A DNA stretch of 64,000 nucleotides from Rhizophagus irregularis. Lineage: Eukaryota; Glomeromycota; Glomeromycetes; Glomerales; Glomeraceae. The notes under the pieces were generated by a model. It made no database searches and was not told the origin of the DNA. It saw only the letters and a program-made list of their open reading frames with translations. The stretch covers positions 124,001-188,000 of the forward strand of contig NC_089450.1 of assembly GCF_026210795.1 (NCBI RefSeq), given 5' to 3'. Position numbers and translations under genes: made by a program. Each line of letters begins with the position of its first letter. Within the stretch, counting starts at the first letter, position 1. Shown here one piece after another: positions 17,248 through 59,180 of this stretch.

Positions 17248-18352
17248 CAGTCAACTCTCTTTATAGTCACACATTTGGGACAGTCCATATTTGGTGATTA
17301 TAAAGAGATGTGACTATATAAAAAATTTCTTATTAGTATATCATAATTCCGGCCAAAAATTAACATAATTTTAGCTAAAATTATACTCAAAACTTTATTG
17401 TATCGTAACTCCGCCAATATTAATTGTAGAGAGATGATCTTACCGCCATTCGATTCGTCTTGATGAGACGGTTCTAATGGTATAAAATACATCGAAATCC
17501 AATCACTAGATTAATTTCCGAAATTAAAAAAATATTAATGGTTTTTGTGTAATAACTCTGCCAATATTGATCCTAGAGAGACGATCTTACCGCCATTCGA
17601 TTCGTCTTGATGAGACGGTTCTAATGGTATAAAATACATCGAAATCCAATCACTAGATTAATTTCCGAAATTAAAAAATATTAATGGTTTTTGTGTAATA
17701 ACTCTGCCAATATTGATCCTAGAGAGACAATCTTACTACCATTCGATTCGTCTTAATGCGACGAATCTAATGGTATAAAATACATCGAAATCCAATCACT
17801 AGATCATTTTCCGAAATTAAAAAATATTAAATGGTTTTTAAGTAGTAACTCCGTCAATATTGATCACAGAGAGATGAGCTTACCACCATTCGATTCGTCT
17901 TGATGAGGCGATTCCAACGAGCTATTAATCGTCTTTTTACAATCACTAGGTACTGAGAAATTTAGCAAAATGTTAAATGGCGCAGTAAACGTAAATCAAG
18001 AAATATAATAATGCCGATGCTTAACATTTTGTTGAATAACTCATCAGCCAGTGATCGCAAAAGGATAAAACTACCACCATTCGATTCATCTCAGTGAGAC
18101 GATTCTAACAAGCTATGATACATCTTTGTACGATTATTAGATGCCAAGTTATTTAATATATTCTTTATATAACTGTGATTATAAACGGTTCTTTTTAATA
18201 TAAGATTTTTGAGGATAGGTGTGATAGTGACTATAGATAGATTGTGACTATATAGGATAGTTTTTAATAATAAAGTGTTTTGAACATTCAACTGGTGTGA
18301 CTATATAGTAGAATGTGACTATAACGGGAGTGACTATAGAGGGAGTTGACTG
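17248..18352. mobile_element. Nonautonomous Tc1/mariner-like element with internal array
   Basis: A 1.1-kb element flanked by TA (17246-17247, 18353-18354). Inverted ends: the left starts CAGTCAACTCTCTTTATAGT and the right, reversed, starts CAGTCAACTCCCTCTATAGT; further GTGACTATA copies are subterminal at both ends. There is no transposase frame. The middle is a degenerating tandem array (17400-17880), each unit containing the palindromic GAGACG module found elsewhere in the window, with further copies at 17881 and 18071. TA duplication and TIR style fit a pogo/mariner MITE. Confidence 0.85.
17400..17880. repeat. Tandem array of about 145-bp units
   Basis: Three clear copies and a fourth diverged copy of a unit reading in order 'CTCTGCCAATATTGAT', 'GAGAGACGATCTTACC', the palindromic module (ATTCGATTCGTCTTGATGAG, then ACG), 'TAAAATACATCGAAATCC' and 'AATCACTAGATTA'. 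The first two are nearly identical, so the array expanded after the element formed. Confidence 0.85.
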
Positions 18353-20160
18353 TATTTCCTTTTTTAGATTTTATTTATATATAGTAAGATCTTCAAAAAA
18401 TTCTCAATTATAAATTTTATTTTAAGTTTTCAATAATCTATCTTGTAAGTAACTAAAGTAGGATCCTCCGATGATGCCTTTTAAAAACATTAAGTAAGTA
18501 AACTTATTTTAAGATTAAAACTTGAGAAATAGAACCTCCATTTTTTAACATGTTTTTTAAAAAAAGGAAGTAAAGAATTGACTTTTTCAAAGAAATATCT
18601 GCTATTGCAAATGCTTCTATAAAATCTTCAATAACTTATTTTTTTAACTCAGCTGTCACTTGAGTAGAAGCAAAAGTAAGTTGTTGTGTTTAATTTTGCT
18701 CTTCATGACTTTTCATATTTGATATATATTTTTAACTATTACAATAATTATCTATAGTAGATTTTTATCTCTATTTTACAGAAATATTAAAAAAATACTT
18801 TATTATTAATATGGAAAATATCCTTATATTTACTACATTTAGTATAAACTAATACATTTTTGTAATTTTTTTTTCTTTTCAGCATTGTAAAGTATGAAAA
18901 AAAAAAATAGATTGGATTTAATAGATTTGATAATCATAAATTTTTCTTTAACTATAGATTATGCGTTAAATCATAAAACAAATTCAAATTATGTGATATT
19001 ATATTGTGTAAAATTCAAATTATGTATTTGTCACATAATTATTCATTTTATATAATATTATACGATTATATAAAATCATCGTTCCTGATTCAGTTCAGGT
19101 TAGATTTATAATTCAAGACCAGATCAGATTAGACCAAACTGAATATTTCGGTCTGAGTTGAAGTATCAACTCAAACTGAACCAATCCTAATTTTCAATCC
19201 AGATTGCCAGATTAGAATCAAACTGATTAGAACTTTAAATAAAATTTAATGTAATAAAATTTTTTTATATAATTAAATATATACTACATTAAGGATTTGT
19301 TATATCATAAAATTCATTATATCAAAATTCACTATAGAAAAGACTGACTATATATTAAGAAAAACTCCTTTTTTTTTTCTTTTACTTTCTATTTGTTAAA
19401 CTCCTTTTTCTTTTTTCTAACTTTATTTTTTCTCATTTTTTTAGTGAAAAATAATGAACAGGAATTTTTAGAATCATCTTTAATTAAAATATTTTTTATT
19501 AAATATGCCTTTGCAAATAAAATTTTATTAAATAAGATTATTTTAAGGCTATATAAATAAATTGTTAGTTTCTCATCAGTAGCTGGATCATATAAATGTC
19601 ATGAAAAATAGTGTTTCAGGCAAAACTGAAACGTAATATCTAGCGAAACTTCTGAAATTTGGTGAGACTGATTTCATCAAATGTGCAAAATTCCAAAACT
19701 GGTAAAACTTTAAAACCTAAAAAATCACGTGTTAAACATTAAACTTTTAATTGGCTATAGTAAGGTATAATCATATGATTCCAAGATCTCATTTTTCATT
19801 AAATTATTTTAGATGTAAGGTAGAATTTTGTACAAGTCCTTATTTTTAACACTACCAAATATTAATTTCCATTTAAAAAATTTTGTCGTAATCTAATTAG
19901 TTAAAATATGATTGGATATTATAAATATGGTAAAAATATATATCATATGGGCTGATTTATAAAATTAAGTTTTTATATTCAAAAAACTAACTTTATTAAG
20001 CAAATAATGCAAATACAAGTTACATGAAAATGATAAATTCATACCAGCTGACATAAATAAAATTGATTTAATTATATTATTTTTTGATTTTTTTTAATAA
20101 TATCATTAAAATTAAAAAATTTTGGGCCCGTGATCACCAGACATTGAAGATAGGGCCTTT
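18353..20160. other. Gene-free A/T-rich DNA
   Basis: No supported gene. 19595-19730 contains 'TTTCAGGCAAAACTGAAAC'-type text that resembles, in diverged form, 23450-23590. This suggests scattered copies of one old repeat. Confidence 0.45.
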
Positions 20161-20171
20161 ATGGCTAAGAT

Positions 20172-21518
20172 TAAAGCTCCGCATGAGCCGGCTTGAGCCG
20201 AGCCACAGTCTGGCTCGGCTCAGCTTGAAAAAAAAATTCTGGCCTGAGCCAGAATAAGCCGAGCCATAAAAATTTTGGCTCAAGCTAAAGTGAAATGAAG
20301 CCGCCATGATTTTCATGGCTCGAGCTAAACCAGGCTCGAGCTTTATTTTCAGAAAAACGGTTCGCAACGTTTTTTTATTAAAGAATTAAAAAAAATGTTG
20401 CGAAACGTTTTTTTCTAAAATAATATTGTGAAAAAAATGTTTTCGCAACGTTTTTTTATTAAAGAACTTAAAAAAATGTTGTGAAATGTTTTTTTCTAAT
20501 ATAATATTGTGAAAAAAACGTTTTCGCAACGTTTTTTTACTAAAGAATTTAAAAAAATGTTGCGAAAACGTTTTTTTCTAAAATAATATAGTGAAAAAAA
20601 CGTTTTGCAACGTTTTTTACTAAAGTTAAAAAAAATGTTGCGAAACGTTTTTTCCAATATAATATAGTGAAAAAGCGTTTTTGCAACATTTTTTTATTAA
20701 AGAACTTAAAAAATGTTGCGAAACGTTTTTTCTAAAATAATATAGTGAAAAAACGTTTTCACAACGTTTTTTATTAAAGAACTTAAAAAAGCGTTGCGAA
20801 ACATTTTTTCTAATATAATATAAAAAAAACGTTTTCGCAACGTTTTTTTATTAAAGAATTTAAAAAAACGTTGCGAAACGTTTTTTTCTAAAATAATATA
20901 GTGAAAAAAACGTTTTCGCAACATTTTTTACTAAAGAATGTTTTTTTCCAATATAATATAGTGAAAAAAACGTTTTCGCAACGTTTTTTTTATTAAAGAA
21001 CTTAAAAAAATGTTGCGAAACATTTTTTTCTAATATAATATAGTGAAAAAACGTTTTCGCAATGTTTTTTTATTAAAGAATTTAGAAAAACGTTGCGAAA
21101 CATTTTTTTCTAATATTAGATAATGAAAAAAATGTTTTCGCAACATTTTTTTACTAAAGAATTTAAAAAAACGTTGCGAAACGTTTTTTCTAAAATAATA
21201 TAGTAAAAAAAACGTTTTCGCACCATTTTTTACTAAAGAATTAAAAAAAACGTTGCGAAACATTTTTTTTAATATAATATTATACAAAAAACGTTTTTGC
21301 AACGTTTTTTGTATGATACTCAGCCCAGTTTCGGAGCTGTACTGAAATTTTACATCGTTTCGGTTTTTCGTGTTCGAAATTTATCACCGGCTCGAGCTCA
21401 TTTCAAGCTAGCTCGCGAGCCACTGAGCCAATTTAATCGTGACTCAGCTCGGCTCAGATTGAAAAGCTGCCAAGCCAGCTCGTCGTGCATCCGGCAGAAA
21501 TCGAGCTTTAAATTTAAG
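20172..21518. mobile_element. Candidate nonautonomous element around a hairpin satellite
   Basis: Inverted-looking ends: TAAAGCTCCGCATGAGCC at the left, and a right end whose reverse complement begins TAAAGCTCGATTTC. Both ends are followed by G+C-richer 'GCTCGGCTCAG / GAGCCGAGCC' subterminal repeats (20185-20345 and 21385-21475), in sharp contrast to the A/T-rich surroundings. The interior is the satellite at 20357-21310. TAAAGCTC also starts the hAT-like element at 56760, suggesting the same superfamily. No clean target duplication was identified, so boundaries are provisional. Confidence 0.55.
20357..21310. repeat. Hairpin-forming satellite array
   Basis: About eight copies of a roughly 115-120 bp unit made of two facing arms, AACGTTTTCGCAACGTTTTT and AAAAACGTTGCGAAACGTTT, separated by A/T spacers (ATTAAAGAATTT on one side, TAAAATAATATAGTG on the other). 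Every unit can fold into a hairpin, and adjacent arms from neighbouring units can pair too. Open frames here (MLRKRFFHYIILEKNVSQRF and similar) are translations of the repeat, not genes. Confidence 0.9.
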
Positions 21519-21766
21519 ATGACTGTTCTTAAATAAAAGAGTCTACCTACGGAGTCAAACGATCACTTGACAGTGCACACGTGGAGTACTACCGGTATGA
21601 CAAGTAGTTTGTAGTTTAATTATATTAGAGTAGTTATTAGGAAATTTTACTTTATATATATTTTTTTATTTTTTTATTTTAATAAAACTGCAAATGCGCT
21701 GCGAAAAAAAAAAAAAAAAATTAAAAAAATTTAAATATAATTGTTATGACAAAATATTGAATAACT

Positions 21767-22306
21767 CACAGGTCGAAAAGTGAAAAATCAGACATCAATC
21801 AGTCACCAATCGGTCACCAATCAGGTAGCTGATTGGTGACCGATTGGTGACTGATTGGCATTTTCGCCAAATATCGTCACCAATCAGGCAGTTTGCTAAC
21901 TTTTAATCCAGTGATCAAAAAAAAATGAAATATAGCTCATTGGAATCATCTCAACAAGACGAATCTAATGGTAGTAAAATCATATTTTTAGGATTAATAG
22001 TTAATAATAAAATATTGAATAAAATATAAATGATACATTTTTATATTTATATTTTACTTAATTTCTCATCAAGTATTAATCCTAGAAATGCGATTTTACT
22101 ACCATTAGATTCGTCTTGTTGAGACGATTCCAATGAGCTATATTTAATTTTTTTCTGATCACTGGATCAAAAGTTAGCAAACTGCCTGATTGGTGATGGT
22201 ATTTGGCAAAAATGCCAATCAGTCACCAATCAATCACCAATCAGCTACCTGATTGGTGACCGATTGGTGACTGATTGATGCCTGATTTTTCACTTTTCAA
22301 CCTGTG
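21767..22306. mobile_element. Foldback MITE with CACTA/Plavaka-like ends
   Basis: A 540-bp element bounded by the 3-bp duplication ACT (21764-21766 and 22307-22309). Ends begin CACAGGTCGAAAAGTGAAAA and, reversed, CACAGGTTGAAAAGTGAAAA. The two halves are near-perfect inverted copies for about 230 bp, so a transcript would form one long hairpin. Subterminal DNA repeats ACCAATC and its complement many times, as do the ends of the large Plavaka-type element at 45.5-53.7 kb (CACAGGTAG... CCAATCGGG). Each arm contains one copy of the GAGACG palindromic module (21931-21980, 22095-22141). The 3-bp duplication and CAC ends suit CACTA-related mobilisation. Confidence 0.85.
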
Positions 22307-22309
22307 ACT

Positions 22310-23230
22310 TAACGTGTATGTGTGCTAGACGAATGAATTTATATTCATTAGAAAAAGATAATCAAAAGCTATCCATAAACCAAATATCGCATGAATTGAA
22401 TCACAAGTTGCTGAATAATTACGTTCAATATATTTATTTTTGACTTTTGACTTTGATCATTAATATTTTTACATCTAATAATTCAATTTGAATGATCTTT
22501 TTTTTTCAGGTAGAGTAGTTTCTGGGTTTTCATATAAATATAAATATATGTGTTTAGCATACATACATATACACTAAGATATTAATGATTTTGTTAATTG
22601 AATAAAACTCTGATACAAAAATTTTTAAAATTATAATTCTTACCAAAAGATGATCTTTACAGGTATTATTGAGCTCTTTTTACTTTACTTAATAAGGTTT
22701 TATTTGCTATTTCTATTTTAAATTGAATAAATTAATAAAATCAATTTTAAAAAGTAATTAACAAGTAGAATAAAATCAGTATAGTAAAAAACAAAAAAAA
22801 AACATCTCAAAAACTCTAAATCATAACTCACATTTTATTTTGTATATATTTTTACTAAAAAAAAGAAGGAACTAAGGTTAAAAATAAATGAAAAAAGATT
22901 TTTCTTATTAATATAAATTATTAATATTTGTTTTCTTACTTACTGATTAAAAAAAACTTGCTATATATGCCTATAAACTTTTCTAAGTCACCTAACAAAA
23001 ATCTGATTGAAAAATGATTAAAAAGTGATTGAAAAAGAAAGTAGTTGCCATTGTTATTTTTGAATAAATGTTAAAAATTTTTTTTTTATTTTTTAATAGA
23101 TTTAGATCATCTGATTATGTAACACATATAATTTAAGCTTGTGAAACATAATTCTTGTTAAAATGTGCAAATCTTTATGAAAATCTTAATTTGGCTAATT
23201 TCATGAATTGGCGGATATGTATATATATAT
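22310..23230. repeat. Dispersed long repeat, copy A
   Basis: This non-coding stretch matches 48500-49745 over most of its length at moderate divergence. Shared landmarks in order are 'GAATTGAATCAC', 'GATCATTAAT', 'TTCAATTTGAATGATCTTT', 'TTACCAAAA', 'GGTTTTATTTGC(T/C)ATTT', 'GTAACACATAT' and 'ATGAAAATCTTAATTT'. No protein is encoded and ends are not defined. It starts directly after the CACTA-like MITE. Confidence 0.65.
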
Positions 23231-26200
23231 AATTTATTTAATATTTCAATTAAAGCAAATAAAATAAATAAATATGAAAACATGAATAATAAAAAGAATT
23301 TAGATTTGCGATTTTGAAAATTTAAAATTCAATGTTAATATAAACATGTAATCTACAACTGAATTTTGGACATGAAACTTATTTAACAACCAATTAAAAA
23401 GATATGTACATGACAATTTTAGTTTTGTTAAATTTCAGAAGTTTCATCAAATTTTGGACATTTTGCCAGGTTTTGGCAGTTTCAGAATAGCTGAAACTGA
23501 AACTTAAAATGGGCAAAACGTTTCACTAATCACAAAACAGTTTCATCCAAAACATTAATCGCAAAACAGTTTCGCCTAAAACATTAATAAAAAATACACT
23601 TTTTTTATTTTTTTAGTCATATGATACCAGCTGGATCCAAAAAATTTTAAAATAAATGTTTTTTTTTTATTATTTAATTTATATTTTAAATTTTTCATGC
23701 AGATCACCAGATAGGAAAAAAATTATTAAAGATAATAAATTTTTTTTCAAATTATTAGGTAGGAAAAAAATTTATGTTTTTTTAACCAATCATATTTCAG
23801 AAATCATCTAATTTTTTTTTAAAATAAATTATTTTTCTGGACAACCAGATTACTTTTTATTATTTATATTCATAAAAAATGAACTATTTTATTTATATGA
23901 CCTATTTACAAAAAAAATTTTTTTAAAATATTTTTTGCAATAAAATTTTAAGTTTAGCCAATCAAAAATTAGTTAAATTAAAAATCAGCTGTCAGGTATT
24001 TTTAAATATTTTCTGTAATTTTCTGATGATACAATAATAAATGAAAATAACTTCTATTTTGAAAATAATAACAGTATAGCAAATTATTTTTAATTTTCTA
24101 CTGGTATATAAAATTTAACAACTAGCTTACCCTATAAAAAAAAAAAATTCTTTAAAATGTACTTAAAATATATAAGTACATTTTAAATATATTTTAAAGA
24201 ATTTTTTTTATAGGATTAATATCATTTAATTGAATTTATAAAAATAATCTTTAGTAATTTTTTAAATAATCTTCAATTTAATAATTATCGCCGTTTTCAA
24301 AATGATGTGTGCAATATTGATCATCTGATTAAAAAAAATTTCCAGATTTTCACTGAATATTTTAAACTCAATATATGTTTCGCATTCTTTTCTAACTATT
24401 ACCTAAGATTCCCTGCCAGAACTTGTGTTAATAGGTTTATTTACAGCTTTTCCTTGAGTTATAAGTCAATTTATTATATACAGTTTTGAGTTTCTTTCGT
24501 CCAAAGTTTGAGATTATTGGCAATTATTGAGTTTACCATCAATAACTAATGATTTTCTCTAAAACTTTAACGTTCTTACATTTTTTTTCTATTCACAGAT
24601 ACCATTTTCTCTCTTTTTATAATAATTATAATCAATTACATTAATAGTGTTAATAAATTTTGTAAGTAATTTTAAATTTTTTGCCTATTACATTATATTG
24701 CATTATTATAAAATAATTTAGTATTTTTGGTTAATTAAAAGGTTTTAAAAGGCTATATAAAGTTTTTCTGTAAATATTGGAATGTTTAGAATTTAGATTT
24801 ATTGAATTTTAGCGAAACTATCTAACTGTGTATGCTTATTTTTACAATTTTATAACAATAGATATTTTATGCTTCAAAACAAGTTAAAAGCTAAGTTAAA
24901 AAATTAAATAAGTTATTTAACAGGTATGGTGTTGCTTAGACTAAAGTTTTATCAAGTTTAAATGGTTATTTTAAAAAATTCTAAACATTTTTATAATAAT
25001 GATATTGACTTTGTATTTATTTTCTCTTTATCTTTACAGAAATTCTATATGAAAATTTGGAATTTTTATATTGTAAAATTGAAGCCTTATAAGGATTTAA
25101 TTTGTAATTGTATAAAGGAGAGATTGAAATTATAAAACAAATAAAATTTTAAATAAAAATTAATTTTTTCGCGAAGCAATGATTTTTTTCACTTATTGTC
25201 ACATACTCACATGACCGTTAAAATATTTGATTAGCCAATTTTATTTATTTTGATCATATGACTAATAATCATAATCAGTATTCGAATTTCATGCATGATC
25301 GAGCTGCATATACCATTTTGAAAATGGCGATAAATCTTATACTTGGATATTTTTTTATATCAAGAAAAAAGATTATAATAAATTTATGACAAAATACTTA
25401 TGTAGATAGGACTGTTTTTTTTTCATTAATTTTATTTATAAATATTTTTCTTTTATTTTTTCTATAATTTTTATTTCATTTATATATAAAATTTTCTATT
25501 TTATTTTCTTTTATATTTATATTTTTTTTTTATATTTTTATATTTTAGATTTGTAATTTTATTTTAAGTTATGTGTTTAGGTTACTTTAAAACTTTTCAG
25601 TACTTTTTTTAATACTGTATTAAGGTATCCTATAAGAATTACATTGCCATTTATATATTTAATCTTTTGCAATAATATTAAGACTTCTAAATAATCTAAT
25701 ATGAAAGTAGAAAAATTCGTGCAACTTATTAGTTTAGCTTTTTGTCTATTATATTATCTATGTCAATGGTTATTAGATCTAACAATTTGTATGCAAACTT
25801 TTATTTAAAGTAGTATATTGATGAAATAGATAAAAAAGCGATTAGATAGACTTTATTTTACAGAAACAAAAAATTTATGATATTAGATAAATTAATAGTT
25901 AATTATAATTTGGTTAATTAACTGTTATTTAACTATTGATTAATTTTATAATTTTAGTTAAAATATATTAATTTATTAGTTTAAATTAATCATATAATTT
26001 AAATTTCTTTTTTGATTAGTTAATTTATAATTAACTAAATTAATTATTAATTAACCAATTTTAGTTAAATATAATTAATCAAATTAACTATTAATTAATT
26101 ATAGTTAATTAACCCTCATTTCTATATTAGAGCATAACAGGTTCTACAATTTTTATGAACAATGAAAATAAGGCTTATCAAGTTAAGATCATTTCACTGA

Positions 26201-26638
26201 ATTTCAATTCAGTTGTTACCCAACAGTTTGACAGTGTATATGTAAATATAGTAATTAATAATGTTAAATAAACAATAAGTTTTTCTTTACTTTTGTAATT
26301 AGACTTTTTTTATATTTAATAAATTATTATATGCATTGCAAAAAAAAAAGAATTTTACTAACTTGCTTCCTAAATTAAATAATCTAGGTTAAATTACTTC
26401 CTTAAAATTTATATTTTACATTAATATTTTTTTTTTAAAAAAAAAATTATTTGTATTATTATCTATTTTACTTTATATAGATTTTATTTATTTGAATATT
26501 ATAGAGTATAATGACCAAATTTTTTTACATGTCTTTTATTTTTAGCAATTTCTATTTGTATACGGAATGTTTGAACCCGGATCATGTGATTATTGCCATT
26601 TTGACTAATAATATAAACTTCAAAATTAGTAGATAAAT
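23231..26638. other. Gene-free A/T-rich DNA with simple repeats
   Basis: No supported gene. It includes a small foldback at 24131-24214 and a low-complexity TTAATTAAC-type block (25880-26120). The frame at 24307-24489 has no recognisable domain. Confidence 0.5.
24131..24214. repeat. 84-bp foldback element
   Basis: Inverted ends CCTATAAAAAAA and TTTTTTTTATAGG enclose complementary ATTCTTTAAAATGTACTT / AAGTACATTTTAAA arms, so almost the whole segment can pair with itself. Confidence 0.6.
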
Positions 26639-26850
26639 GGATTTTTGCCTGCTTTACAAGTTTACCTAAAGCATTAAAGGTGCTTTTGAATGTCAGTTTT
26701 GACTTTACCTATGAATAATTGATTTTGCTAACGTTTCTTAAAAAAAATTTAGGAAATGATCAGCAAAGACAGTTTTTCATATGTAAGTCAAAAACAGCAT
26801 TTAAAACCCCTTTGATGCCTTAAGTAAACTTGCAAAGCAGTCAAAAATAC
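26639..26850. repeat. Foldback MITE, 212 bp
   Basis: Two arms of about 100 bp are inverted copies. The left reads GGATTTTTGCCTGCTTTACA and the right, reversed, reads GTATTTTTGACTGCTTTGCA; both continue with 'AGTTTAC(C/T)TAA(A/G)GCAT(T/C)AAAGG' and 'TTTTGACTTxACxTATGAA'. No coding content. Divergence between arms indicates an old copy. Confidence 0.75.
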
Positions 26851-27369
26851 ATATATTACATAGAAAAAGCAAAAGGGTGTGACATTGGTGTCATTATATT
26901 TCATATGACCTATATTCAAATATCTCATATAAACTTTGAAATTTCTTTATTTTTTATTGTAATCATAATTTACATTTTTTTTAAAAATTTGGGTAAAATT
27001 ATATAATTATATAAATTTACTAATGGTTAAATTATCCAGATTAAATCACATTAGATTAAAATTAATCTTATACTATATAATAATTTTATAGGTAATTATT
27101 ATAATTAAAATCCATGAAAATCTATAAAAAATCTATGAAAATACTATGAAATATTAAATTTTAGTATTTTATCTTTTAATTTTAAATATCTAAACTATTT
27201 CAGTTTAGTTAAATGACTAAATTTTTCAGTTTGACTTAGAATCACTAATAGAATATATCTTATTTATAAATAAGTTGTAAATTCATGTAACTTCTTTTTT
27301 TAAATAAAATTACCATTCTCTTTGAATATAATTTAACAATAATACTGTATAAAAAATTAATTGGATCTA

Positions 27370-27844
27370 TTCCTTAAACTGTAGGGGTTAAAATAAATTT
27401 TAAAAATTTTTGAATTTTTAAAATATCTTAAGATCTAGTGATCATAGAAAGATGAAATTATATTTGTTAGATTCCTCTTATTTAGGCGCATTTAATGGTA
27501 ATAAAATCATAACTCTAAAATTGATAGATAAAAAGTTATATTAATTTATAAATTTTTAGATTTTATAAGTTATCCTGTTACATAATATTTGTAGAAGGAC
27601 AATTTTATTTCTATCAGATTCTTCTCATTAAGACGCATCAAATGGTGGTAATTTTATATTTCTAGGTTTAATGGATAAAAATCATTAATCAAATTGAACT
27701 TTTTTTTCGATTTTTACTTAGAAAATACTATAAAATTTATTACAAAAATATTGGTTTATATAATAAAATATTTTAAGATATTTAAGTGTCTTTAATTAAA
27801 AAACAAAATTGCAGGCAAATTTGGCTGCAAAACAGTTTAAGGGA
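27370..27844. mobile_element. Nonautonomous TA-flanked element with palindromic modules
   Basis: Ends TTCCTTAAACTGT and, reversed, TCCCTTAAACTGT are flanked by TA on both sides (27368-27369, 27845-27846). The interior holds two diverged copies of the GAGACG module (27465-27510, 27610-27655), facing each other. Short TIRs and imperfect modules suggest an old mariner-type MITE. Confidence 0.6.
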
Positions 27845-37772: not shown

Positions 37773-37787
37773 TTATTATAATGCAGT

Positions 37788-38088
37788 TATCTTGACTTCT
37801 AGTGATCCAATTTTAATAAACTTTTTTTTTAATTTATAGCTCTTATTTAGCTCTACAAATATAGTATTACAAAACAAAAAAAAGTTTGTTCAAATTGAAT
37901 TACTAGAAGCCAAGATATTTGTATTTATATTATAATAATTATTATTATAATGCAATTATCTTGACTTCTAGTGATCCAATTTTAATAAACTTTTTTTTAA
38001 TTTATAGCACTCATTTAGTTCTATAAATCTAGCTTTACAAAAAAAAAAAAAGTTTGTTCAAATTGAATCACTAGAAGCCAAGATAATT
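37788..38088. repeat. Two tandem foldback repeats
   Basis: Copies at 37788-37918 and 37955-38088 are each self-complementary: the left arm ATCTTGACTTCTAGTGATCC pairs with the right arm ending CACTAGAAGCCAAGAT, and AATTTTAATAAACTTTTTTT pairs with AAAAAGTTTGTTCAAATT. The two copies are about 90% alike, so one duplicated recently. Confidence 0.8.
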
Positions 38089-38224
38089 ATATAATACTAA
38101 TTATTATATATAATATTTAATATTTAATAGTAATAATTTTTTTAGCCAATCAGATTTCAATCAGGTAGGGGTGGGGGTTAAGGCTACTAATTGAGAGAAA
38201 TTAGCTGATTTCTGGCATGCTCCT

Positions 38225-42880: not shown

Positions 42881-42989
42881 CTTAGTGTCCAGTGTAACTT
42901 GTAACAAACATAATTAATGTAATTACTTAACTAGATGTTACTTTAAGACTAAATTGCGGCGCAATGTCACGTGTTACAATGATTCATTC

Positions 42990-45496: not shown

Positions 45497-45514
45497 CACC
45501 GGTCAAATGATGAC

Positions 45515-47928: not shown

Positions 47929-48499
47929 ATTTAATTATAATATTTCAGTAAGAATATGTTTCAGTAAATTTACAGATAGAAAAATATAGGGTTATGTTAC
48001 AAAAATCGGTAACAAGCGAGAAGAAAAAGTCGAGTCTAAATTAGCTAATATATATATTCCCGATAGTTTATTTTAGCTTAAATAGACTGATTTAATTAAC
48101 TGTTACTATTGATATATTTAAAAATAAAAATAAACTGATTTAATTAACCGTTGCAATTAATATTAAAAATAGTAGCGATAGTGATTTTCTCGCAATTTCT
48201 CTGATTTATACGTTCATATGATTAATTGATACATAAAATTCATTTGTTCAATCATGATTGATATTATTATTTTTTAATTAATTGCAATAACATATGGGCC
48301 GATCCTTGGAATCTAATTTTTTTACACAAAAATAATTTTATTAAAGCAAATATAAATTATTATTTATATAAGAATAATAAATTTATACCAGATAATGCAA
48401 AAAAAACTAATTAATTATATAATTTTTAATTTTTTTTTAATATAAGATATCATTAAAATTTAAAAGATCAAATATAACTCTCATGACAAAATCATTGAT

Positions 48500-49745: not shown

Positions 49746-49752
49746 GGCACAT

Positions 49753-49942
49753 ATGAGATAACTGATTGATATATTATTTTTAAGAATTTATTTAATCAAC
49801 TAAATGAAATAAGCTAACTGATTGATATGGAAATTTTAAGTATTTATTTAATCAACTAAATGAAATAAATTAATTGATTGATATGGAAATTTTAAGAATT
49901 TATTTAATCAACTAAATGAAATAAGTTAACTGATTGAGAACT
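49753..49942. repeat. 58-bp tandem repeat, about three copies
   Basis: The unit reads 'AACTGATTGATATGGAAATT', 'TTAAGAATTTATTTAATCAA' and 'CTAAATGAAATAAG'. Copies differ at few positions. Non-coding, immediately upstream of the transposase. Confidence 0.85.
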
Positions 49943-50041
49943 AATTACGATGAATTTTATAAACAAACTTCAAAGTTATTAAATCAGGTTATTTAAATTT
50001 AAAATAAAATTGGGTTGGTAAATATTTATATCAAACCAAAT

Positions 50042-53000
50042 ATGCCAAGACCAAGAAAATATCGTGTTAATAGAGATCGTTCGAAAGTAACTAAAAGTGG
50101 TCCTAAAACTAGAAATTTGGTTGAATGTAAATGTTTATTGCATTGCGGAGGTAGTAAATTGGTGGATCCCAGAACATTTGAGAGACATCGCAAAGAAATA
50201 GAACAACTCCAAGCCATCGCTACCAGATCTCAAGCTTCTTGATTAAGAGGAACCGGCAAAAAACATAACATTTCTAAAGAAAGAAAAAAAAGCAATTCTA
50301 GCAACAGTTCTAAAGAAAGAAAAAAAAGAAGAACTAGAGTTGTTGAGAATTTATCAGATACCGATGATGATGAAGAATCAGAATGAAATGATGATGATGA
50401 ATTGGAACGAAGCGATGATGAAGAATCGGAATGAAACGATAATGGTGAATCAGAATGAAACGATGATGAAGAATCGGAACGAAATGATAATGATGAATTG
50501 GAACGAAATGATGATGATGAAAACGATAATGAAACTGATAATGAGCCGATTGATGGACCGAAAAGATGAAAACGCCACAATAAGTTTCGTGATGTAAATC
50601 TTGAACAACCTAATAAACTGAAACCAGTTCAACTTGAAGATAAAGTACCGAGCGATGATGATGGAGCTTCCTACTACGATGAGGACGATGTTCAATTGAA
50701 GAATTTACCGCTCCTGATTTTAATGATCTTGAGTCAGACCATGAATATTTTGACATGAACATTAATTTTAATGATTCGTGGATACTTCTGTGGATATTCA
50801 AATACCAAGCGAGATTTCGTGTTCCGGATGTTGCTATTAAGTCACTTATTAAGTTTTCAGGATGGTATTATTGGATACTGATCAAACACGTTTTGAAAAT
50901 TTCCCTACAAGTTTTTATATGGCAAAAAAACTTTTAGGAATTAATAAACGAGATAGGACATGTGCGGTATGTCGAATGCGAACAAAATATCAGAAATTTT
51001 GCCAGGGAAATGCAATCAAACACCAGGATTCCGAATGCCTTTACTAGTGGAATTTCCTAACTATCCTATGCATAATAAAAGGCGGATATGTGGAACAGAA
51101 TTAATTAATAAAGTCCCAGTAGTTAATGGATTTATCTGAAGACCCAGAATGTTATATCCGATACCATCTTTGAAAAAGCAATTGACTGTGATGTATTAAC
51201 GCCCAGGCTTTGAAGAATCACTTCAGAAATGGACAAATTGGAGAAATGAACCAGGCTTATACACCGATATTTACGATAAAGATGTATGGAAAAGCTTTCC
51301 ATTTTCCTTAAACAACCTGGATACTCGATTTTTTACAAATGAGACGGCCAATTCTAATCTTGGGATCATGATTAATTTAGACTGGTTCTAGCCATTTAAT
51401 TCGTCAGCTTACAGTTCTGGTGTTATCTATGGGGTCATATGTAATCTTCCCTGTGATATTAGATTTAAACAAGAAAACATGCTATATCTTGGACTTCTCC
51501 CAGGACCGGAAGAAGTAAAATTACACAAGATTAATCATTTTCTTAGTCCAATTGTCAACGAATTGTTAGAATTCTGGGATGGTGTCGATCTACCATCTGG
51601 TAAAAGAATTCGGATGGCCGTAATTTGCTGCAGAAATGACATACCAGCTGCTAGAAAATTATGTGGACATATTTCGGCACTGGTCGGTTGTCATTGATGC
51701 TACAAAACAGCCAATAGCAGCGGAAGAAGGTTTAATTTTGGTGGGTTTGACGATATGGATGATTGGTACATTTCCAGAGATCCAAATGAGCATTGACGAA
51801 ATGCCGAACTTTAGAGACAGTGCAGAACTCAGGAAGAAAGAAAAAAACATGTTTCCGACACTCACGTGCAGTGGTCGGAAATGCTAAGATTGCCTTATTT
51901 CAATCCGATAAGACATCTTATTGTCAACCCAATGCACTGTTTATTCCTGGGGATTGCTCATTAGATCGTAAAGAAATTATGGATAGATAGCAGAAAAATC
52001 ACTAAAAAGGACCTTGAATTAATGGAAAGAAGAGCAAAAGCTCTTAAAGTACCAGCAGATATCGGAAGGATTCCGTATAAAATAGCAACTGGGGAAGGGT
52101 TTTCTGGATTTATGGCCGATCAATGGAAATCGTTTATTTTAATTTACGAGACTCCATTGATGTGGGATCTCCTAGATACTTCTGATCGTGAAATATTAGC
52201 AAATTTTGTAAGAGCTTGCTCTTTGCTTGTCTGTCGAATTATCACCACCAATGCATTGCGCGAAGCTCATAGCCGATTGCTTTAGCTCATTTAATTGAAA
52301 CGTATTACGGAAAAGAGATGATAACTCCAAACATCCATTTATCACTCCATATTGTCGATTGTTGCCATGATTATGGCCCATTATATTTTTTCTGGTGTTA
52401 CTCGTTTGAAAGAATGAACGGATTATTAGGTAAATATACTGTATATATAAATCAGTATAAGTTATCAGTATAAGTTAAATTTAATAAATGGTATAAATGA
52501 ATTAATTTATTTATCATCTTGCTGTAGGTTCTTTTCCAAATAGTAAGCGAGCTATTAAACTAGAATTGATGCGAATCATCACGCAAAATTCACAGTGTTT
52601 CCTGAGCAAAACTTCTGCTCGATTTAAATTGCCTAATATCCGCCCAATCAGATAATCCAAAATTGATGGAAGCATTATCTCTGGTACAAAATAGGCCAAC
52701 TACTGGAAGTTTAGCGGCTTACGATGGGTTCGATTTTGCTGAACTTTACCGATTTATGCGAACCTTTCATCAAAATATTGACGTTACAATTACCAGTTGT
52801 GAAGAATTTTCCGGAGAAATGATTACCCAAAAAAGCAAGTATCGTTACCAGATACTATATATGAACTTCTGATAAAATATTACAATGATACATACAATAG
52901 GGATTTTGTATCAATTGTCGAATTTGTTTCAAATAATTTAACATCAAGCAATTCTGAAAATCAACCAATCGTTGTATCGCCCAATGTGTCTCAATTCGGT

Positions 53001-53189
53001 CATATTCAGATTGCTACTGAAATCTTTGGATCTGCACTTGCACCTCGATATCAAAGAAGTTCATATATCACAAGCAAGTTTATACAAGATGATGAATCTG
53101 TCGATATTTTGAAGCAAGTGCAGTTTTATTTTGAGCACACAGTTAACACTTCCAACCGGTGCGAAAACAGCATTGACTTGCTTTTATAA
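50042..53189 (+). pseudogene. CACTA/Plavaka-type transposase, heavily broken
   Basis: The N-terminus (50042-50242) begins MPRPRKYRVNRDRSKVTKSG and holds a Cys/His cluster VECKCLLHCGG...TFERHRK resembling the zinc motif of this group; I chose the ATG at 50042 because it directly precedes this basic segment. A Ser/Asp/Glu-rich region with a minisatellite follows. Catalytic-region text includes LGLLPGPEEVKLHKINHFLS with LPSGKRIRMAVICCRNDIPA (51485-51660), then IGRIPYKIATGEGFSGFMAD (52055-52115), FERMNGLLGSFPNSKRAIKL around an interruption (52405-52560), and a C-terminal part to 53189. These blocks match tnp2/Plavaka transposases. More than ten stops or frame changes occur, including TGA codons in the acidic region, so it cannot be active. 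Confidence 0.85.
50380..50540. repeat. Acidic-tract minisatellite in transposase
   Basis: Five to six imperfect copies of a 27-30 bp unit (GATGATGAAGAATCGGAA, then CGAAATGA or TGAAACGA) encode Asp/Glu/Ser repeats. Differences between CGA and TGA turn Arg codons into stops in some units, consistent with C-to-T decay. Confidence 0.7.
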
Positions 53190-53735
53190 AATGGTATATG
53201 TGGGTACCGAGGGAAAAAACAAGATTTCATTGTAGAATCGACAATGAGGATGATAAAGCTGTAATATTAAATTGTGGAAAGATTATTTTCACGAATTATT
53301 AAGAGATTGTATTATACCGATTCATAATATATATAGCCGATTTTTACCTTGTAAATTTACAATAGGCAACCGAAAACCGATTACTTACATGGCAGTCATA
53401 CCTATCAATAGACAATTTCATTTGTAATAATGTTATGATTAGTTTTAAATCGGTAAATTCATATTTCTAGTAATACTGATTAATAAATTTAGTTTCAATA
53501 TAATTAAAACATTGTTTATAAATTTATAAATTATAAAATTGGTAATTTTAAATTTAAACAGTACAATAGAAATCAATCGGTAAATTTAAACTAAACAATA
53601 GTTATCAATCGGGTAATAACCTGATTGGTACCTGATCGAAAGTTTACCCATTTCTAGCTTATTGAACAAATCAGGTGCTATTTAAAAAAAGTGACCAATC
53701 GGGATGGTACCCGATTGGTCAGCTTTCTACCTGTG

Positions 53736-56147
53736 ATATCTACCTTCTATGCTTTCCTCATCATCATGATCTAAACTGCATAACGGACATGATGTCTTAT
53801 CAGTAATGCCATAATAATCGAAATTTTCACTACTAAATTCTCTATATAAATTAGGATATTGATCCAATGTTTTGCTACGAAAATAAGAGCGGTCATAAGT
53901 TGGTTTAGATTGGACTTGTACATTAGTCTGATTGGTTTTTGATGTAGGTGGAGTGCTTATCCCTAGAGATGCGATCCGGATGAAATTTTACAATCCGTGA
54001 TCCGCACAGATCAATCCGGATTATCATAGGATTAAATCCGGATAATCCGAATTAACTTCAAATTTTTGGGTATCTTTGCATCCAACGATCGTATAGAGAT
54101 GCACTATAGCTCATTCGAATCGTTGCATTTAGACGAATCGAATGAGCTATAATACATCTCTGTACGATCACTGGATGCCGAGATAATTGGCAAAACGTGA
54201 AACATCAGCATTTTTATTTTACGATTATGCAAAATTTTACGTTTTGCCGAATATCTCGGCATCCAGTGATCGTACAGAGATGCACAATAGCTCCTTCGAA
54301 TCGTCTCAATGCAACGAATTGAATGAGCTATTGTACATCCCTGTACGATCGTTGGATGCCGAGATATTCGGCAAACCGTCAAAAATCGATAGTATCGTAA
54401 ATAAAAAATGCCGATTTTTGACATTTTGCCGAATATCTCGGCATCCAACGATTGTACAGGGATGCACTATAGCTCATTCGATTCGTTGCATTGAGACGAT
54501 TCGAATGAGCTATTGTACATCTCTGTACGATCACTGGATGCCGAGATATTCGGCAAAACGTAAAATTTTGCATAATCGTAAAATGAAAATGCCGATGTTT
54601 GACGTTTTGCCGAATATCTCGGCATCCAGTGATCGTACAGAGATGCACAATAGCTCATTCAAATCGTCTCATTACGACGATTCGAATGAGCTATTGTGCA
54701 TCTCTCTACGATCATTGGATGCTGTTTCGAATTAAAACGGATATCCTTAATCCATCCGGATGCATCCATTATCCGTTCGGATCGGATGGATTGGCGGATG
54801 ATCTGAATTTTCGGATTTCGGATCGCATCTCTACTTATCCCGACATCTGGTGATCCAGACTTGTTTGATTCTGCTGGTAGGTCACGTGCACGTGAACAAT
54901 TGTTCATGCCGATCAATTTTTGAGATTTGATTAGTTTATCAGTATAAAGATTTATTATATTCTGGATTTGTGCATCAGTTAGCCTAGAGATTGCATCAGC
55001 ACTAGATGTAACTACTCCAATTTTATCTATTCCTATTCCTTTGAACAATGTATGGATGCTTTTGGCCTTTTGAGTCATTTTGCGTAAATACTCTCTTTTT
55101 TTACCAGGGAGATACAGCTCCATTTCATCATAAATTTGCGTTCTTGCCATTTGATCGCTAATATTATTTTCGGAACTAAGGGTTACAACCTTTTTTTCAT
55201 ATTCCTCACTATAGTAATACCATTGTAATTTTTCTTTCCGACCTGTTTTTTCAGCCTTATCAAATAAATGAGCTAAATGAAGTACAGAATCTGGAGTTAA
55301 ATCAGCGTTGACTGGAACATCTGAAATATATTTGCTAGATATAGAATTCGGTAGGGGTGTAGAATCATGTCATCTAATAAATTCAAGTAATTCACATATT
55401 AAATCTTGTTCTACTTTCTGATTATAGGGGATTTTCGCCTCCTTGATCTCTGATAAATTAACCTGTTTTTCTTCTATCTTCTGGGGTTCCATATGAACCA
55501 AGAAGGATTCCTTTGGAGCCGATTCTTTGACTACCTGTTCCGGGAGATTATGTTTAGTGTTAGTCATGGAGAGATCTGCTTCACGGTGAAGCGATTCAGA
55601 AGTAGTTGAGGATGATTGGCTAAGTTTCTTTTGATTCTGTGTCTGCATTCACTAATAACTTTTAACATGCGTCGTAGAAAGCGTCCGTTTCCCTATCTTC
55701 GGGTAATGAAGTATCCACCAATGGTTTCTCATAATGCGTTATCGTGGGCACCTGATCTGCATCCGAATTGAAGTTAGATGAAGTGTTGTTAGAAAAATTA
55801 TCAATTAGCGACTGGTTCTGTTCCACTTTTGTGATTCTATCTCTAAACTCAGCATTCTCAGACTCGAGTTTAGTGGTAACTGTTTTATTTTTCTCTAGTT
55901 CCTCGATTCTGGCCTTAAGTTCGGCATTCTTAACATCACGTCTTTTACTCTCTTCCACAGCCTGTCTTAAAAGCTCAGCAATCCTGGCCTTAAGCTCAAC
56001 TTTCTCGGACTCAATATCAGCAAACTTCCTTTTAAGATCAGGGATCTCAGCATTCTTATCCTTAAGCTCAGTATTCTCCTTCCTAAGCTCAGCAATCTCA
56101 GCTAAGAGCTTGGCATTTAATTCTCTCAATGAATCAATAGATTGCAT
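53736..56147 (-). pseudogene. Coiled-coil family gene split by a hAT MITE
   Basis: It starts at 56147 with a long heptad coiled coil of about 120 residues (LRELNAKLLAEIAELRKENT, then ELKARIAELLRQAVEESKRR). A Ser/Thr-rich linker follows (55640-55380). The conserved core is LQWYYYSEEYEKKV, then MARTQIYDEMELYLPGKKRE, KSIHTLFKGIGIDKIGVVTS and LTDAQIQNIINLYTD (55250-54930). The C-terminus reads YDRSYFRSKTLDQYPNLYRE, then TSCPLCSLDHDDEESIEGRY with a CxxC pair. From memory this is a large gene family in Rhizophagus with no assigned function. Damage: a frame change and stops near 55660-55645, a TGA near 55370, the MITE at 53964-54833, and loss of the 3' end at the element junction 53735/53736. Removing the MITE plus one duplication leaves the frame open across that point. 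Confidence 0.75.
53964..54833. mobile_element. hAT-like MITE with perfect 8-bp duplication
   Basis: An 870-bp element flanked by CTTATCCC on both sides (53956-53963, 54834-54841). Inverted ends TAGAGATGCGATCCG and CGGATCGCATCTCTA; subterminal GGAT/ATCC repeats (ATCCGGATAATCCG type). The interior has four copies of the GAGACG palindromic module (54105, 54281, 54465, 54648) separated by 'GAATATCTCGGCATCCA' and 'ACGTTTTGCCGAATATC' spacers in alternating orientation. No transposase. An 8-bp duplication with 5' TAG ends fits hAT. The perfect duplication indicates a fairly recent insertion. Confidence 0.92.
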
Positions 56148-56759
56148 GTTCGATAATAATTTTTTATATAAAACGTATTAATTCAAAAGCTCGTTAGCAT
56201 AGATAAAAAACTGTGACAAAATGTCACGATCAGAATTGATTTATTGATGTAAAAAAATAAATTACAAGATTCGAAAATATATAAACGTTTTAAGTAGAGT
56301 CTCTATACTAATGCCTGCTGGTGTTTTGTTCATCTAAGCTATCTATATACTAACACATCTCAACGTTAACACGATTTCATTTGTCACCAATATCGATATT
56401 CTGGATAGAATAAAAGCGTAGAACATGCAGAGTCAGAAATAAGTTAACAGTATTGATCTTACCAAAAATTTATGTCCTCCGCTTAATAAGGTCTTCGAAA
56501 TTTCTGAACAAAAAATAGATATAAGCTTTGCAATCCCCGAGTCGCTTCCTTGCAAATGTCTGAAAAATATACTTCATTCATATTTTAATTGCGAAATGTC
56601 TCATCTGTACTTTAATAATTTTTTCGTCAACACTTTTTAAACTGCAAGGTTCATGCTCAGAGAAAATAGCACGACGGCTTGAGGTCGGAATAAGAAAAAA
56701 AAAGTGATACTGCATCAGAGAAAACGCCTTAATTACACCAGATCTAATTTAGTTATGAC
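56148..56759. other. Intergenic DNA
   Basis: Upstream region of the coiled-coil gene, somewhat less A/T-rich than average. No gene or repeat recognised. Frames here are not coding-like. Confidence 0.45.
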
Positions 56760-57887
56760 TAAAGCTCCGAACAGTTCCAGTTTGAACCGGGAACCGATCC
56801 GGAACCGGCAAAAAATTCGGTTCGGTTCTCGGTTCGGTTTTGGACTTGGAACCGTCCGGTTCGGTTCGGTTCTATCCGAAATTAAGAAAAAATGCGAAAA
56901 AACGAATATACGACTATCCAGTGATCGTACAAGGACGAGCCATAGCTCGTTGGAATCCTCTCATCGAGACGCGTCGAATGGTAGTAAAATCAAGTCTCTA
57001 GCATCGATAGATCACGAGATAGCACATGGTGAGTGTTTCTTAAAAAATTTGCATTAGAAAACGATCCATTGATGCTAGAGACATGAATTTACCACCATTC
57101 GACGCATCTCGACGAGACGAATCTAATGAGCTATAATTCGTCCTTTTACAATCACTGGATGGTCGTGTATTCATTTTTTCGCATTTTTTTTTAAATTTTC
57201 GAACGTCAAAAATTAAAATTCCGATACAAGCGATTAAACGCCATCTATTGATCACACAAAGACGAATTTAGCTCATTAGATTCGTCTCACTGAGACGAGT
57301 CGAATGGTGGTAAAATGATGTCACTAGCATCGATAGATCGTTTTCTAATGCGAATTGTTTAAGAAACACTCACCATGGGCTATCTCACGTTCTATCGATG
57401 CTAGAGACTTTATTTTACCACCATTCGACTCATCTCAGTGAGACGAATCCAATGAGCTAAAATTCGTCTTTGTGTGATCAATAGATGGCGTTTAATCGCT
57501 TGTATCGGAATTTTAATTTTTGACGTTCGAAAATTTAAAAAAAATGCGAAAAAACGAATACACGACCATCCAGTGATTGCAAAAAGACGAATTATAGCTC
57601 ATTAGATTCGTCTCGTTGAGATGCGTCGAATGGTGGTAAATTCATGTCTCTAGCATCAATGGATCGTTTTCTAATACAAATTTTTTAAGAAACACTCACC
57701 ATGTTTTATCTCGTGATGTATCGATGCTAGAGACTTGATTTTACCACCGTTCGACGCGTCTCGATGAGAGGATTCCAACGAGCTATGGCTCGTCCTTGTA
57801 CGATCACTGGATGGTCGTGTATTCATTTTTTCGCATTTTTCTTAATTTCGGATAGAACCGAACCGAACTGACCCGTTCGGAGCTTTA
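56760..57887. mobile_element. hAT-like MITE, 1.13 kb
   Basis: Flanked by the perfect 8-bp duplication GTTATGAC (56752-56759, 57888-57895). Inverted ends TAAAGCTCCGAACAG and, reversed, TAAAGCTCCGAACGG; subterminal GGTTCGGTTC / GAACCGAACC repeats. The interior consists of three alternating inverted pairs of a block of about 150 bp with the GAGACG module (about 56940, 57095, 57265, 57415, 57595, 57740), each flanked by 'ATCCAGTGATCG' or its variants and 'TCTAGCATCGATAGATC'. No transposase; the open frames on either strand are translations of these repeats. Confidence 0.92.
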
Positions 57888-58030
57888 GTTATGACATAAT
57901 TTAAAATTAATTTTATTGGCTACTAATTATTGTTGTACAATCGATGAATTAATAAATACCTCATGAATGCAATCTGAGTAATGATAAAATCGTATGAATC
58001 ACTCTTTTTCGCTTGCCGACAAGTTAATTT

Positions 58031-58135
58031 TATAAACTTTTTTTTTACTATGCTTATATCATTATATAAACTTTTTTTTTACTGTGCTTATATCATTATA
58101 TAAACTTTTTTATATTATGCTTATATCATTATATT
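58031..58135. repeat. Short tandem repeat, three units
   Basis: Three copies of a roughly 40-bp unit (ATAAACTTTTTTTTTACT, then ATGCTTATATCATTAT) lie in the 384-bp gap between the hAT and Tc1-like elements. Nothing else is recognised in that gap. Confidence 0.75.
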
Positions 58136-58271
58136 ATATTTCGTGTCACCAATTAAGAGTTTATAAAGATCATTTTATAATTAATCATGATGTATTCAGA
58201 AAAGTATATAAAGTATATATTATATATATCTTAGACTTTCTTGAAATTTTTTAACTTTTTCTAAAAAGCTA

Positions 58272-59180
58272 CAGAAGGCGATCAAAATTATCCGGCCAGT
58301 TTATTTTGCTAAAATTTTGTTGATCATGATGTGTTAATGTAATATAAATAAGATATAACTTTGTATTTATAATCACAATAAACAAATTCCAATGCTTCAT
58401 ATTTTTCGAAAATATGAAGTCACCCTATAGTATGAATTTTATAAATTTTACAATTTTGTGTAAACAAACTTAAAAATATTAAAAATATCATAATTTCGCC
58501 AATATCGATCTGATCGACCTGTGCTTACCACCATTCGAATCGTCTCAATGAGACGGATCAAAAGAGCTATAAATCGGAAAATTTCAATCACAGGATCAGA
58601 AAATATCATAGATGACATTTAGGCTTTTAGAGCGTAATCATGTGATGAATATCGATCCTACAAACATTAAATTATTACCATTCAAATCCTCTCAATGAGA
58701 CGAATCTGATGAACCCAAAATTTCAAAATTTCAATCACTAGATCTCAAAATAACCTTAACATACAATTTTAAATTTTAAAATTTGCGAATTTCGCAAACT
58801 CGAAAAATTTATAATTTACATAGTATTACATTTGCATAATACCTGTAATTAATATGTAATATAATGGCATAATACTTTTTCAACATTATGCTTGCATACC
58901 TTATTAAATTTTCTGATAAAACCACTTGAAAAGTACTATGTTAAAGTTGCATTGAAAGGTATTACTCCAGAATATTATAAAAAATCTATCAATAGCATAT
59001 CTCTGTGAATTGGGGAGTTATTTTTGCAAATGGAGATAGAATTTATTATTAAAATTTTATCTGAATTAGTAAACAAAGACATAATGAATTTGTTTAACTT
59101 AAATTTTTATTATTGCTATATTATATATATATAAATTATTTCAACTTGAAAAGTGGCCGGATAATTCTGATCGCCCTCTG
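58272..59180. mobile_element. Tc1-like MITE abutting the Crinkler gene
   Basis: Flanked by TA (58270-58271, 59181-59182). Ends CAGAAGGCGATCAAAATTAT and, reversed, CAGAGGGCGATCAGAATTAT, followed by CCGGCCA on both sides; this is a classic Tc1-type terminus. The interior holds an AT-rich hairpin (TTCATATTTTTCGAAAATATGAA, in two halves, near 58397-58420) and two copies of the GAGACG module (58525-58575, 58670-58720). No transposase. The right end lies 22 bp before the next gene's start codon. Confidence 0.9.

What the first reader, a model, noticed from the sequence alone, without database searches (positions are those of the whole stretch)
17441..58720. One palindromic module inside MITEs of three different superfamilies
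A module centred on TCGTCTCAATGAGACGA, flanked by AGCTCATT-GAA on one side and TC-AATGGTAGTAAAATC or GAATGAGCTAT on the other, occurs about 20 times. Sites: 17441, 17589, 17735, 17881, 18071, 21931, 22095, 27465, 27610, 54105, 54281, 54465, 54648, 56940, 57095, 57265, 57415, 57595, 57740, 58525 and 58670. Every copy lies inside an element with its own TIRs: TA-flanked (17248, 27370, 58272), 8-bp hAT-like (53964, 56760) or 3-bp CACTA-like (21767). The terminal sequences are unrelated, so common descent of the MITEs does not explain the shared core. Possibilities are a second-order mobile module that inserts into MITEs, a host-protein or replication site that favours MITE success, or repeated template switching. 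I know of no described element class with this property.
Basis: partly seen in the sequence, partly recalled or inferred. Interest (0 to 1): 0.9.

Follow-up and report, generated by a model that had tools for sequence, protein, structure and literature searches.

The report
Shared palindromic module in fungal MITEs
In the genome of what appears to be a root-symbiotic fungus, short "cut-and-paste" DNA parasites with unrelated ends carry the same small palindromic DNA module in their middles, and in one family (with weaker support from two others, and none from a fourth) the module is preserved while the parasites multiply but decays freely once they have landed, as if it helps them spread.

Summary
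In detail: 21 modules (42 homologous arms) in six elements with TIRs and target-site duplications. The genome fits Rhizophagus irregularis DAOM197198. I found two more host families, making eight TIR families and three TSD lengths (TA, 3 bp, 8 bp). The module is not inserted into established MITEs: copies chosen by their ends carry it at a fixed place (E7 37 of 40; E6a 13 of the 17 ends tested). Nor do unrelated ends exclude common descent: E1, E4 and E8 also share the spacers between modules, so module arrays have been combined with different terminal shells. The main new result is in E5 (21 copies): mutations seen in one copy only are spread evenly, but variants shared by copies are rare in module cores (4 shared: 36 single, against 87:90 elsewhere). 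E6 lineages agree, E2 weakly; E1 does not. I read the module as a cis-acting pair of inverted half-sites, probably bound by a host protein, that favours the success of MITE shells carrying it. Factor and benefit are inferred. Coral CMITEs are a real precedent (different TIRs, conserved interior), with a single TSD type. New variant of a known kind.

The parts
17248..18352 (.). Host E1: TIR CAGTCAACTCYCTYTATAGTCAC, TSD TA; five modules centred 17463, 17610, 17756, 17903, 18094
   Evidence: TIR/TSD; arms; other two-ended copies
21767..22306 (.). Host E2: TIR CACAGGTYGAAAAGTG, TSD ACT; two modules centred 21954 and 22119
   Evidence: TIR/TSD; arms; three further copies with other 3-bp TSDs
27370..27844 (.). 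Host E3: TIR TYCCTTAAACTGT, TSD TA; two degraded modules centred 27482 and 27628
   Evidence: TIR/TSD; arms; 40 left-end matches among 102 candidates
53964..54833 (.). Host E4 (hAT-like by TIR and 8-bp TSD): TIR TAGAGATGCGATCCG, TSD CTTATCCC; four A-A modules centred 54128, 54309, 54491, 54672, spacing 181-182
   Evidence: TIR/TSD; arms; 33 left-end matches
56760..57887 (.). Host E5 (hAT-like): TIR TAAAGCTCCGAAC, TSD GTTATGAC; six A-B modules centred 56964, 57110, 57290, 57438, 57616, 57764, spacing 146-149 and 178-180
   Evidence: TIR/TSD; arms; 10 of 11 E5-type loci scanned show a different 8-bp TSD each
58272..59180 (.). Host E6: TIR CAGARGGCGATCARAATTATCCGGC, TSD TA; two modules centred 58548 and 58695
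   Evidence: TIR/TSD; arms; relatives L007, L089, L093-L098
57232..57349 (.). Example module (A arm then inverted B arm): outer box ATC.ANTGATC, inner half-site CATTNGANTCGTCTCA, centre CTCACTGAG
37773..38092 (.). Two tandem 168-base units, probably a type II relative: box-like TTATCTTGACTTCTAGTGATC ends around a different core; not part of the type I module
   Evidence: weak profile hits; assignment by eye

Best explanation
The module is a cis-acting DNA element shared by descent among MITE families whose ends are unrelated. Each unit is a pair of inverted, imperfect half-sites (inner CATTNGANTCGTCTCA, outer ATCCAGTGATC or a B-type variant), repeated in alternating orientation. Arrays of such units became combined with different terminal shells, probably by exchange of ends or template switching during repair, and were then inherited vertically inside each family (shown: fixed position within E7 and E6a; shared spacers in E1, E4 and E8; the route of exchange is inferred). 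In copies that go on transposing, the core is held by purifying selection (clear in E5, supported in E6, weak in E2, not seen in E1). Because hosts differ in ends and TSDs they presumably use different transposases, so the likeliest reader of the module is one host DNA-binding protein that keeps the element accessible, aids synapsis or copying, or shields it from silencing (inferred, untested).
For: E5, 21 copies, query stretch excluded: single-copy variants 8.4 per kb in core, 10.2 in arms, 7.3 in spacers, 9.6 outside the array; shared variants 0.020, 0.064, 0.155, 0.177 per site; core 4:36 against 87:90, p 2e-6. Allowing for linkage: distinct carrier sets p 0.0003 against spacer plus outside, 0.003 against spacer; 3 of 1128 circular shifts of the core mask do as well. 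E5 subfamily consensus divergence 0.14-0.17 core against 0.30-0.31 spacer in the two deep comparisons, 0.045 against 0.113 in the third. E6: window against L007, 11 core and 43 spacer differences, within-lineage old copy L095 15 and 10, p 0.0008; L089 p 0.01; L098 p 0.02. E2: 3:9 core, 20:12 spacer, p 0.04. Vertical inheritance: E7 37 of 40 left ends, E6a 13 of 17 tested; 8 of 8 interiors fetched by end position have arm hits. Shared spacers E1/E4/E8. Arm subtypes A and B older than the families: nearest arm of another family has the same subtype for 81 of 98.
Against: E1 shows no depletion, if anything the reverse: 17:46 core against 47:239, p 0.07; 4:9 against 13:37 in five well-aligned copies. 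In E2 the region outside the array is about as poor in shared variants (7:11), so core against spacer plus outside is p 0.11. E6 lineage L096 gives p 0.42. E5 copies were the best hits to one module, not a random sample. Between most families spacers are not alignable, so descent of a whole array is shown for three families only. No protein, expression, binding or mobility data.
Confidence: 0.5

Rival explanations
1. Neutral shared filler: a satellite-like palindromic array was caught between unrelated TIRs by repair or template switching and has no function.
For: Spacers are shared by E1, E4 and E8; unit numbers vary between copies; E1 shows no core depletion.
Against: Core depletion of shared but not single-copy variants in E5, with E6 and weakly E2. 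The six cores within an E5 element differ from each other, so homogenisation is an unlikely cause.
Confidence: 0.25
2. Chromatin platform: the arrays set nucleosomes, or act as a boundary, at fixed spacing, and no sequence-specific factor is needed beyond that.
For: Of 197 centre spacings in 69 arrays, 119 are 144-150 and 64 are 176-182; 146-149 recurs in E1, E3, E5, E6 and E7 although their spacers score like shuffles.
Against: E2 (159-164) and L007 (133) depart from it; most of the 197 spacings come from E5; the strongest conservation is at the core half-sites, not in the spacing; no chromatin data.
Confidence: 0.12
3. Hairpin or cruciform, or double-stranded RNA from read-through, is the conserved property.
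For: Near-palindromic arrays: arms of 253-311 bases 92-95% complementary in E2, E4 and E5; strong single-module folding in E4, z -13.
Against: Folding is not shared: z -3.8 E7, -2.7 E5, -2.6 E2, -1.1 E6, +1.6 E1. Arms of one module match each other no better than arms of different modules in most of 12 arrays (rough).
Confidence: 0.08
4. Second-order mobile module: the unit is itself a mini-transposon, its outer box being its TIR, and it inserts into MITEs.
For: Box-like ends also bracket two unrelated cores (types II and III), as MITEs with a common TIR do.
Against: Fixed position in end-selected copies; no TSD or empty site of its own seen; most arrays hold whole pairs of arms (57 of the 64 multi-arm arrays run from a + to a - arm).
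Confidence: 0.04

Closest known systems
CMITEs of Acropora corals (PMC2872659; passages and one section read)
   Same: MITE families with different TIRs share a conserved internal region (75 bases), better conserved than the TIRs; they can form tandem arrays; the authors speculate that the interior matters for transposition.
   Different: All CMITEs have TTAA TSDs (piggyBac type) and about 100 bases; here hosts have TA, 3-bp and 8-bp TSDs, the module is an inverted half-site pair repeated with quantised spacing, and a shared-versus-single variant test supports constraint.
mPing and its relatives: internal sequences that tune mobility (PMC9921582; abstract and outline)
   Same: Internal MITE sequence, not only the TIR, affects transposition.
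   Different: One element family with one transposase; no module shared with other superfamilies.
Tetris, foldback transposon of Drosophila virilis (PMC4079207; abstract and outline)
   Same: Non-autonomous inverted-repeat element with internal tandem repeats of about 220 bases.
   Different: Its repeats lie in its TIRs and seeded satellite DNA; not reported there as shared by unrelated TIR families.
TFIIIC-bound B-box clusters (S. pombe boundary repeats; recalled, no call)
   Same: Clustered inverted copies of a short site; arms contain TTCGANTC in part.
   Different: The C of the recalled B-box core is C, A or G in these arms (CATT[C/A/G]GA); no tRNA or Rfam match in the window.

Membership tests
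MITE (the hosts) | Terminal inverted repeats with a target-site duplication | tested here: met
   Six of six window hosts; E7 and E8, each from one insertion event
MITE (the hosts) | Short, many copies, no transposase gene | tested here: inconclusive
   About 0.5-1.1 kb; at least 33-40 end matches for E3, E4, E6, E7; an ORF list was made but no domain search of the hosts was run
MITE (the hosts) | Mobilised by a known autonomous partner | not tested
   No transposase search was run; superfamily labels rest on TIR and TSD
CMITE-like MITEs | Families with different TIRs share a conserved interior | tested here: met
   Eight TIR families with the same module
CMITE-like MITEs | Common TTAA TSD (piggyBac type) | tested here: not met
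   TSDs are TA, 3 bp or 8 bp
Independent mobile module | Own TSD or empty site at its boundary | tested here: not met
   None seen by eye in the arrays read; fixed position in families; not an exhaustive search
tRNA or TFIIIC B box | Invariant GTTCRANNC core (consensus recalled) | tested here: not met
   G and C positions vary among arms; no tRNA or Rfam match in the window
Protein-binding cis element | Sequence constrained beyond neutral surroundings | tested here: inconclusive
   Met in E5, supported in E6, weak in E2, not met in E1
Protein-binding cis element | A protein binds it | not testable with these tools
   Needs pull-down or DAP-seq

The most novel reading that the evidence does not exclude
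One exchangeable 'passport' module: a host DNA-binding protein recognises the paired half-sites, and any non-autonomous transposon shell that acquires the array, whatever its transposase, gains in spread; unrelated MITE superfamilies therefore share and trade the same internal module, with nucleosome-length spacing as part of its design.
Probability: 0.25. Interest if true: 0.88.

Novelty: new variant of a known kind. Interest (0 to 1): 0.64.

Why it matters
MITEs are usually explained by their ends. Here an interior part is shared across end types that should need different transposases, and in one family it is measurably constrained in propagating copies. If confirmed, it gives a direct way to ask what besides a transposase makes a MITE successful, and a handle on the unclassified repeats of arbuscular mycorrhizal fungi (about two-thirds of their TEs, PMC11075540, passages). 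The shared-versus-single variant comparison can be run on any MITE family.

Tried and rejected
TFIIIC B box: rejected because core positions vary (consensus recalled) and no tRNA or Rfam family matches in the window. Hairpin as the conserved property: disfavoured. L003 as a further host (TA, CAGTCAAACTTCGA): rejected, it is an E5-type copy nested in another element. Constraint in E1: looked for, not found; two E1 copies had been picked by the exact 17-mer, which biases that core, and module number varies. L006, L077 and L090 as solo units: rejected, they are right parts of E1 with a break at one point of module 5; in L065 that point holds an insertion. L091: four arms, no host TIR pair found in 1.4 kb, beside an E4-like end. 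Exact box: 126 forward and 115 reverse sites; only the first 100 places are listed; they form 40 clusters on C1-C11, of which 4 are near E4 left ends and 23 near E8 left ends, 13 unassigned. E8 copies L101 and L102 share their flanks, so they count as one insertion. The first E5 profile used a reversed reference and was redone; the TIR coordinates were about 8 bases off, so their TIR figures are not used. In one search three arms of an old E5-like copy next to an E1 copy were labelled E1.

Literature searches (listings of an open-access library) gave coral CMITEs as the nearest precedent; I saw no description of this module in them.
Full report
WHAT IS THERE. The window is C22:124001-188000 of a 146.7-Mb assembly in 32 contigs. 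Contig C13 has 5,085,394 bases, the scaffold N50 given for the 32-scaffold R. irregularis DAOM197198 assembly (PMC10234402, passages), so I take the organism to be that fungus (inference). Twenty-one modules lie at the stated places, each of two homologous inverted arms; a profile made from those arms finds all 42. Two further weak single-arm hits lie outside the hosts (48565, 48905).

ANATOMY. An arm has an outer box (best form GAATATCTCGGCATCCAGTGATC), a middle part and an inner half-site CATTNGANTCGTCTCA. Two subtypes, A (TAGCTCATT) and B (TACCACCATT), combine as A-A, A-B or B-B. The nearest arm of another family has the same subtype for 81 of 98 arms, so the subtypes look older than the present families. 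Spacing of module centres is quantised: of 197 spacings in the 69 arrays found in held sequence, 119 are 144-150, 64 are 176-182 and 14 differ. E5 supplies most, but 146-149 also occurs in E1, E3, E6 and E7; E2 has 159-164 and L007 133.

HOSTS. All six window hosts have exact TSDs and TIRs. Elsewhere, 10 of 11 E5-type loci scanned showed an 8-bp TSD, each different, and 3 of 4 further two-ended E2 copies a 3-bp TSD, each different (of loci L009-L038 six of 30 were scanned). Two more hosts were found: E7, TIR TAAGGATGGTCATC, TSD CTGAACTA (L076), and E8, TIR TAAAGTTGCCTGCC (one base differs at the left end of L101), TSD GTTATAAT (L101, L102, same flanks). Left-end searches, which score at most 40 candidates, gave 40 matches for E3 (of 102 candidates), E6 (67) and E7 (107), 33 for E4 (33) and 43, three of them second pieces, for E8 (154). 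Eight TIR families with TA, 3-bp or 8-bp TSDs result. Superfamily names rest on TIR and TSD only.

NOT A MOBILE INSERT. Copies picked by their ends carry the module in place. In E7, 37 of 40 left ends have a module hit (up to 3 mismatches in 37 bases) 280-700 bases inside (first hits 366-387 or 509-517), and 50 of 58 such hits in the genome lie within 1500 bases of one of those ends. In E6, of the 40 matches I tested the 17 closest to the window form or cut short: 13 have the E6a module at 180-420 bases, one of the other four (C14) carries a decayed one by sequence (L095), and all 14 module hits lie within 1500 bases of one of the 17 ends. Eight interiors fetched at predicted places (six E6, two E2) all gave arm hits, the weakest being L095 and L096.

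SHARED DESCENT OF THE INTERIOR. Between most families only the module, about 48 bases on each side of the centre, is alignable; spacers score like shuffles. But the spacer between A arms is homologous in E1, E4 and E8 (61 to 65 identical of 89 to 96 columns, z 8.5 to 14.9), whose ends are unrelated and whose TSDs are 2 and 8 bp. There a piece longer than the module has been combined with different ends.

CONSTRAINT. Twenty-six six-module E5 arrays were aligned; five divergent copies were set aside, 21 kept. Variants in one copy only, which mostly arose after insertion, are as frequent in cores as elsewhere (8.4 per kb in cores, 10.2 in arms, 7.3 in spacers, 9.6 outside the array). Variants shared by copies, which were mostly passed on by transposition, fall from 0.177 (outside) and 0.155 (spacers) per site to 0.064 in arms and 0.020 in cores (the BLAST query stretch left out). 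Core 4 shared to 36 single against 87 to 90: p 2e-6; arms 18:60, p 1e-4. Linked variants inflate this: distinct carrier sets give p 0.0003, or 0.003 against spacers alone, and 3 of 1128 circular shifts of the core mask do as well. The six cores of one element differ from one another, so homogenisation is an unlikely cause. E6: window against L007 differs at 11 core and 43 spacer sites, the old within-lineage copy L095 at 15 and 10 (p 0.0008); L089 p 0.01; L098 p 0.02; L096 p 0.42. E2, eight copies, three of them partial: 3:9 in cores, 20:12 in spacers, p 0.04, but 7:11 outside, and p 0.11 against both. E1: no depletion, 17:46 against 47:239, p 0.07 the other way, and 4:9 against 13:37 in five well-aligned copies. 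The test stands on one strong, one moderate and one weak family, with one that does not show it.

HOW IT WORKS. Shown: presence, vertical inheritance in E7 and E6a, spacers shared under different ends in three families, core constraint in propagating E5 copies. Inferred: that the constraint reflects a protein-bound pair of half-sites. Base pairing is a less likely target: folding against shuffles ranges from z -13 (E4) to +1.6 (E1), and in most of 12 arrays arms match within modules no better than between modules (a rough measure). That hosts use different transposases is inferred from their ends; a single host factor is then the simplest reader. What it gains the element is unknown here.

WIDER CLASS. 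Box-like ends also bracket unrelated cores: type II in L088 200-345 and probably window 37773-38092, type III twice in L004 670-970 (by eye). Of 40 clusters of the exact box on C1-C11, 13 are not explained by E4 or E8 (one of them is the type II unit). More hosts and unit types probably exist.

KNOWN KINDS. Coral CMITEs show interiors better conserved than ends and shared by families with different TIRs, within one TSD class. mPing shows that internal MITE sequence can tune mobility (abstract); Tetris shows internal repeats in a foldback element (abstract). A Stowaway MITE with a transposition-enhancing interior is recalled, and is what the coral paper cites. I saw no report of one module shared by MITEs of different superfamilies in nine searches of an open-access library. 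The two R. irregularis papers were consulted by passages only.

Noticed in passing
L065 1964-2976 (C1:177598-178610); similar break in L077 and L090: A 973-base insertion in module 5 of an E1 copy, flanked by an exact 20-base direct repeat. Its start looks like a tRNA-derived retroposon by eye, but ARAGORN finds no tRNA in L065, L070 or L090.
   Followed up: partly
L088 200-345; L004 670-970: Units with similar outer boxes but unrelated cores (types II and III); the type II unit lies in a piece inserted into an E2 copy.
   Followed up: partly
window 37773-38092: Two tandem 168-base units that look like type II; host ends not looked for.
   Followed up: no
L003 352-2063: An E5-type hAT-like copy nested inside a TA-flanked element with ends CAGTYAAACTTCGATATACCGA.
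   Followed up: partly
L083 254-2706: An E1 copy inside a larger inverted repeat with 206-base arms.
   Followed up: no
window 20353-21310: Tandem units of about 80 bases built on AAAACGTTTTCGCAACGTTTT, themselves partly palindromic; not a type I module.
   Followed up: no
L004 about 1000-1320: Looks by eye like the end of a Tc1-type transposase gene beside the type III units; not searched.
   Followed up: no
L001 238-437: A short element of about 200 bases with E1-like ends and no module.
   Followed up: no
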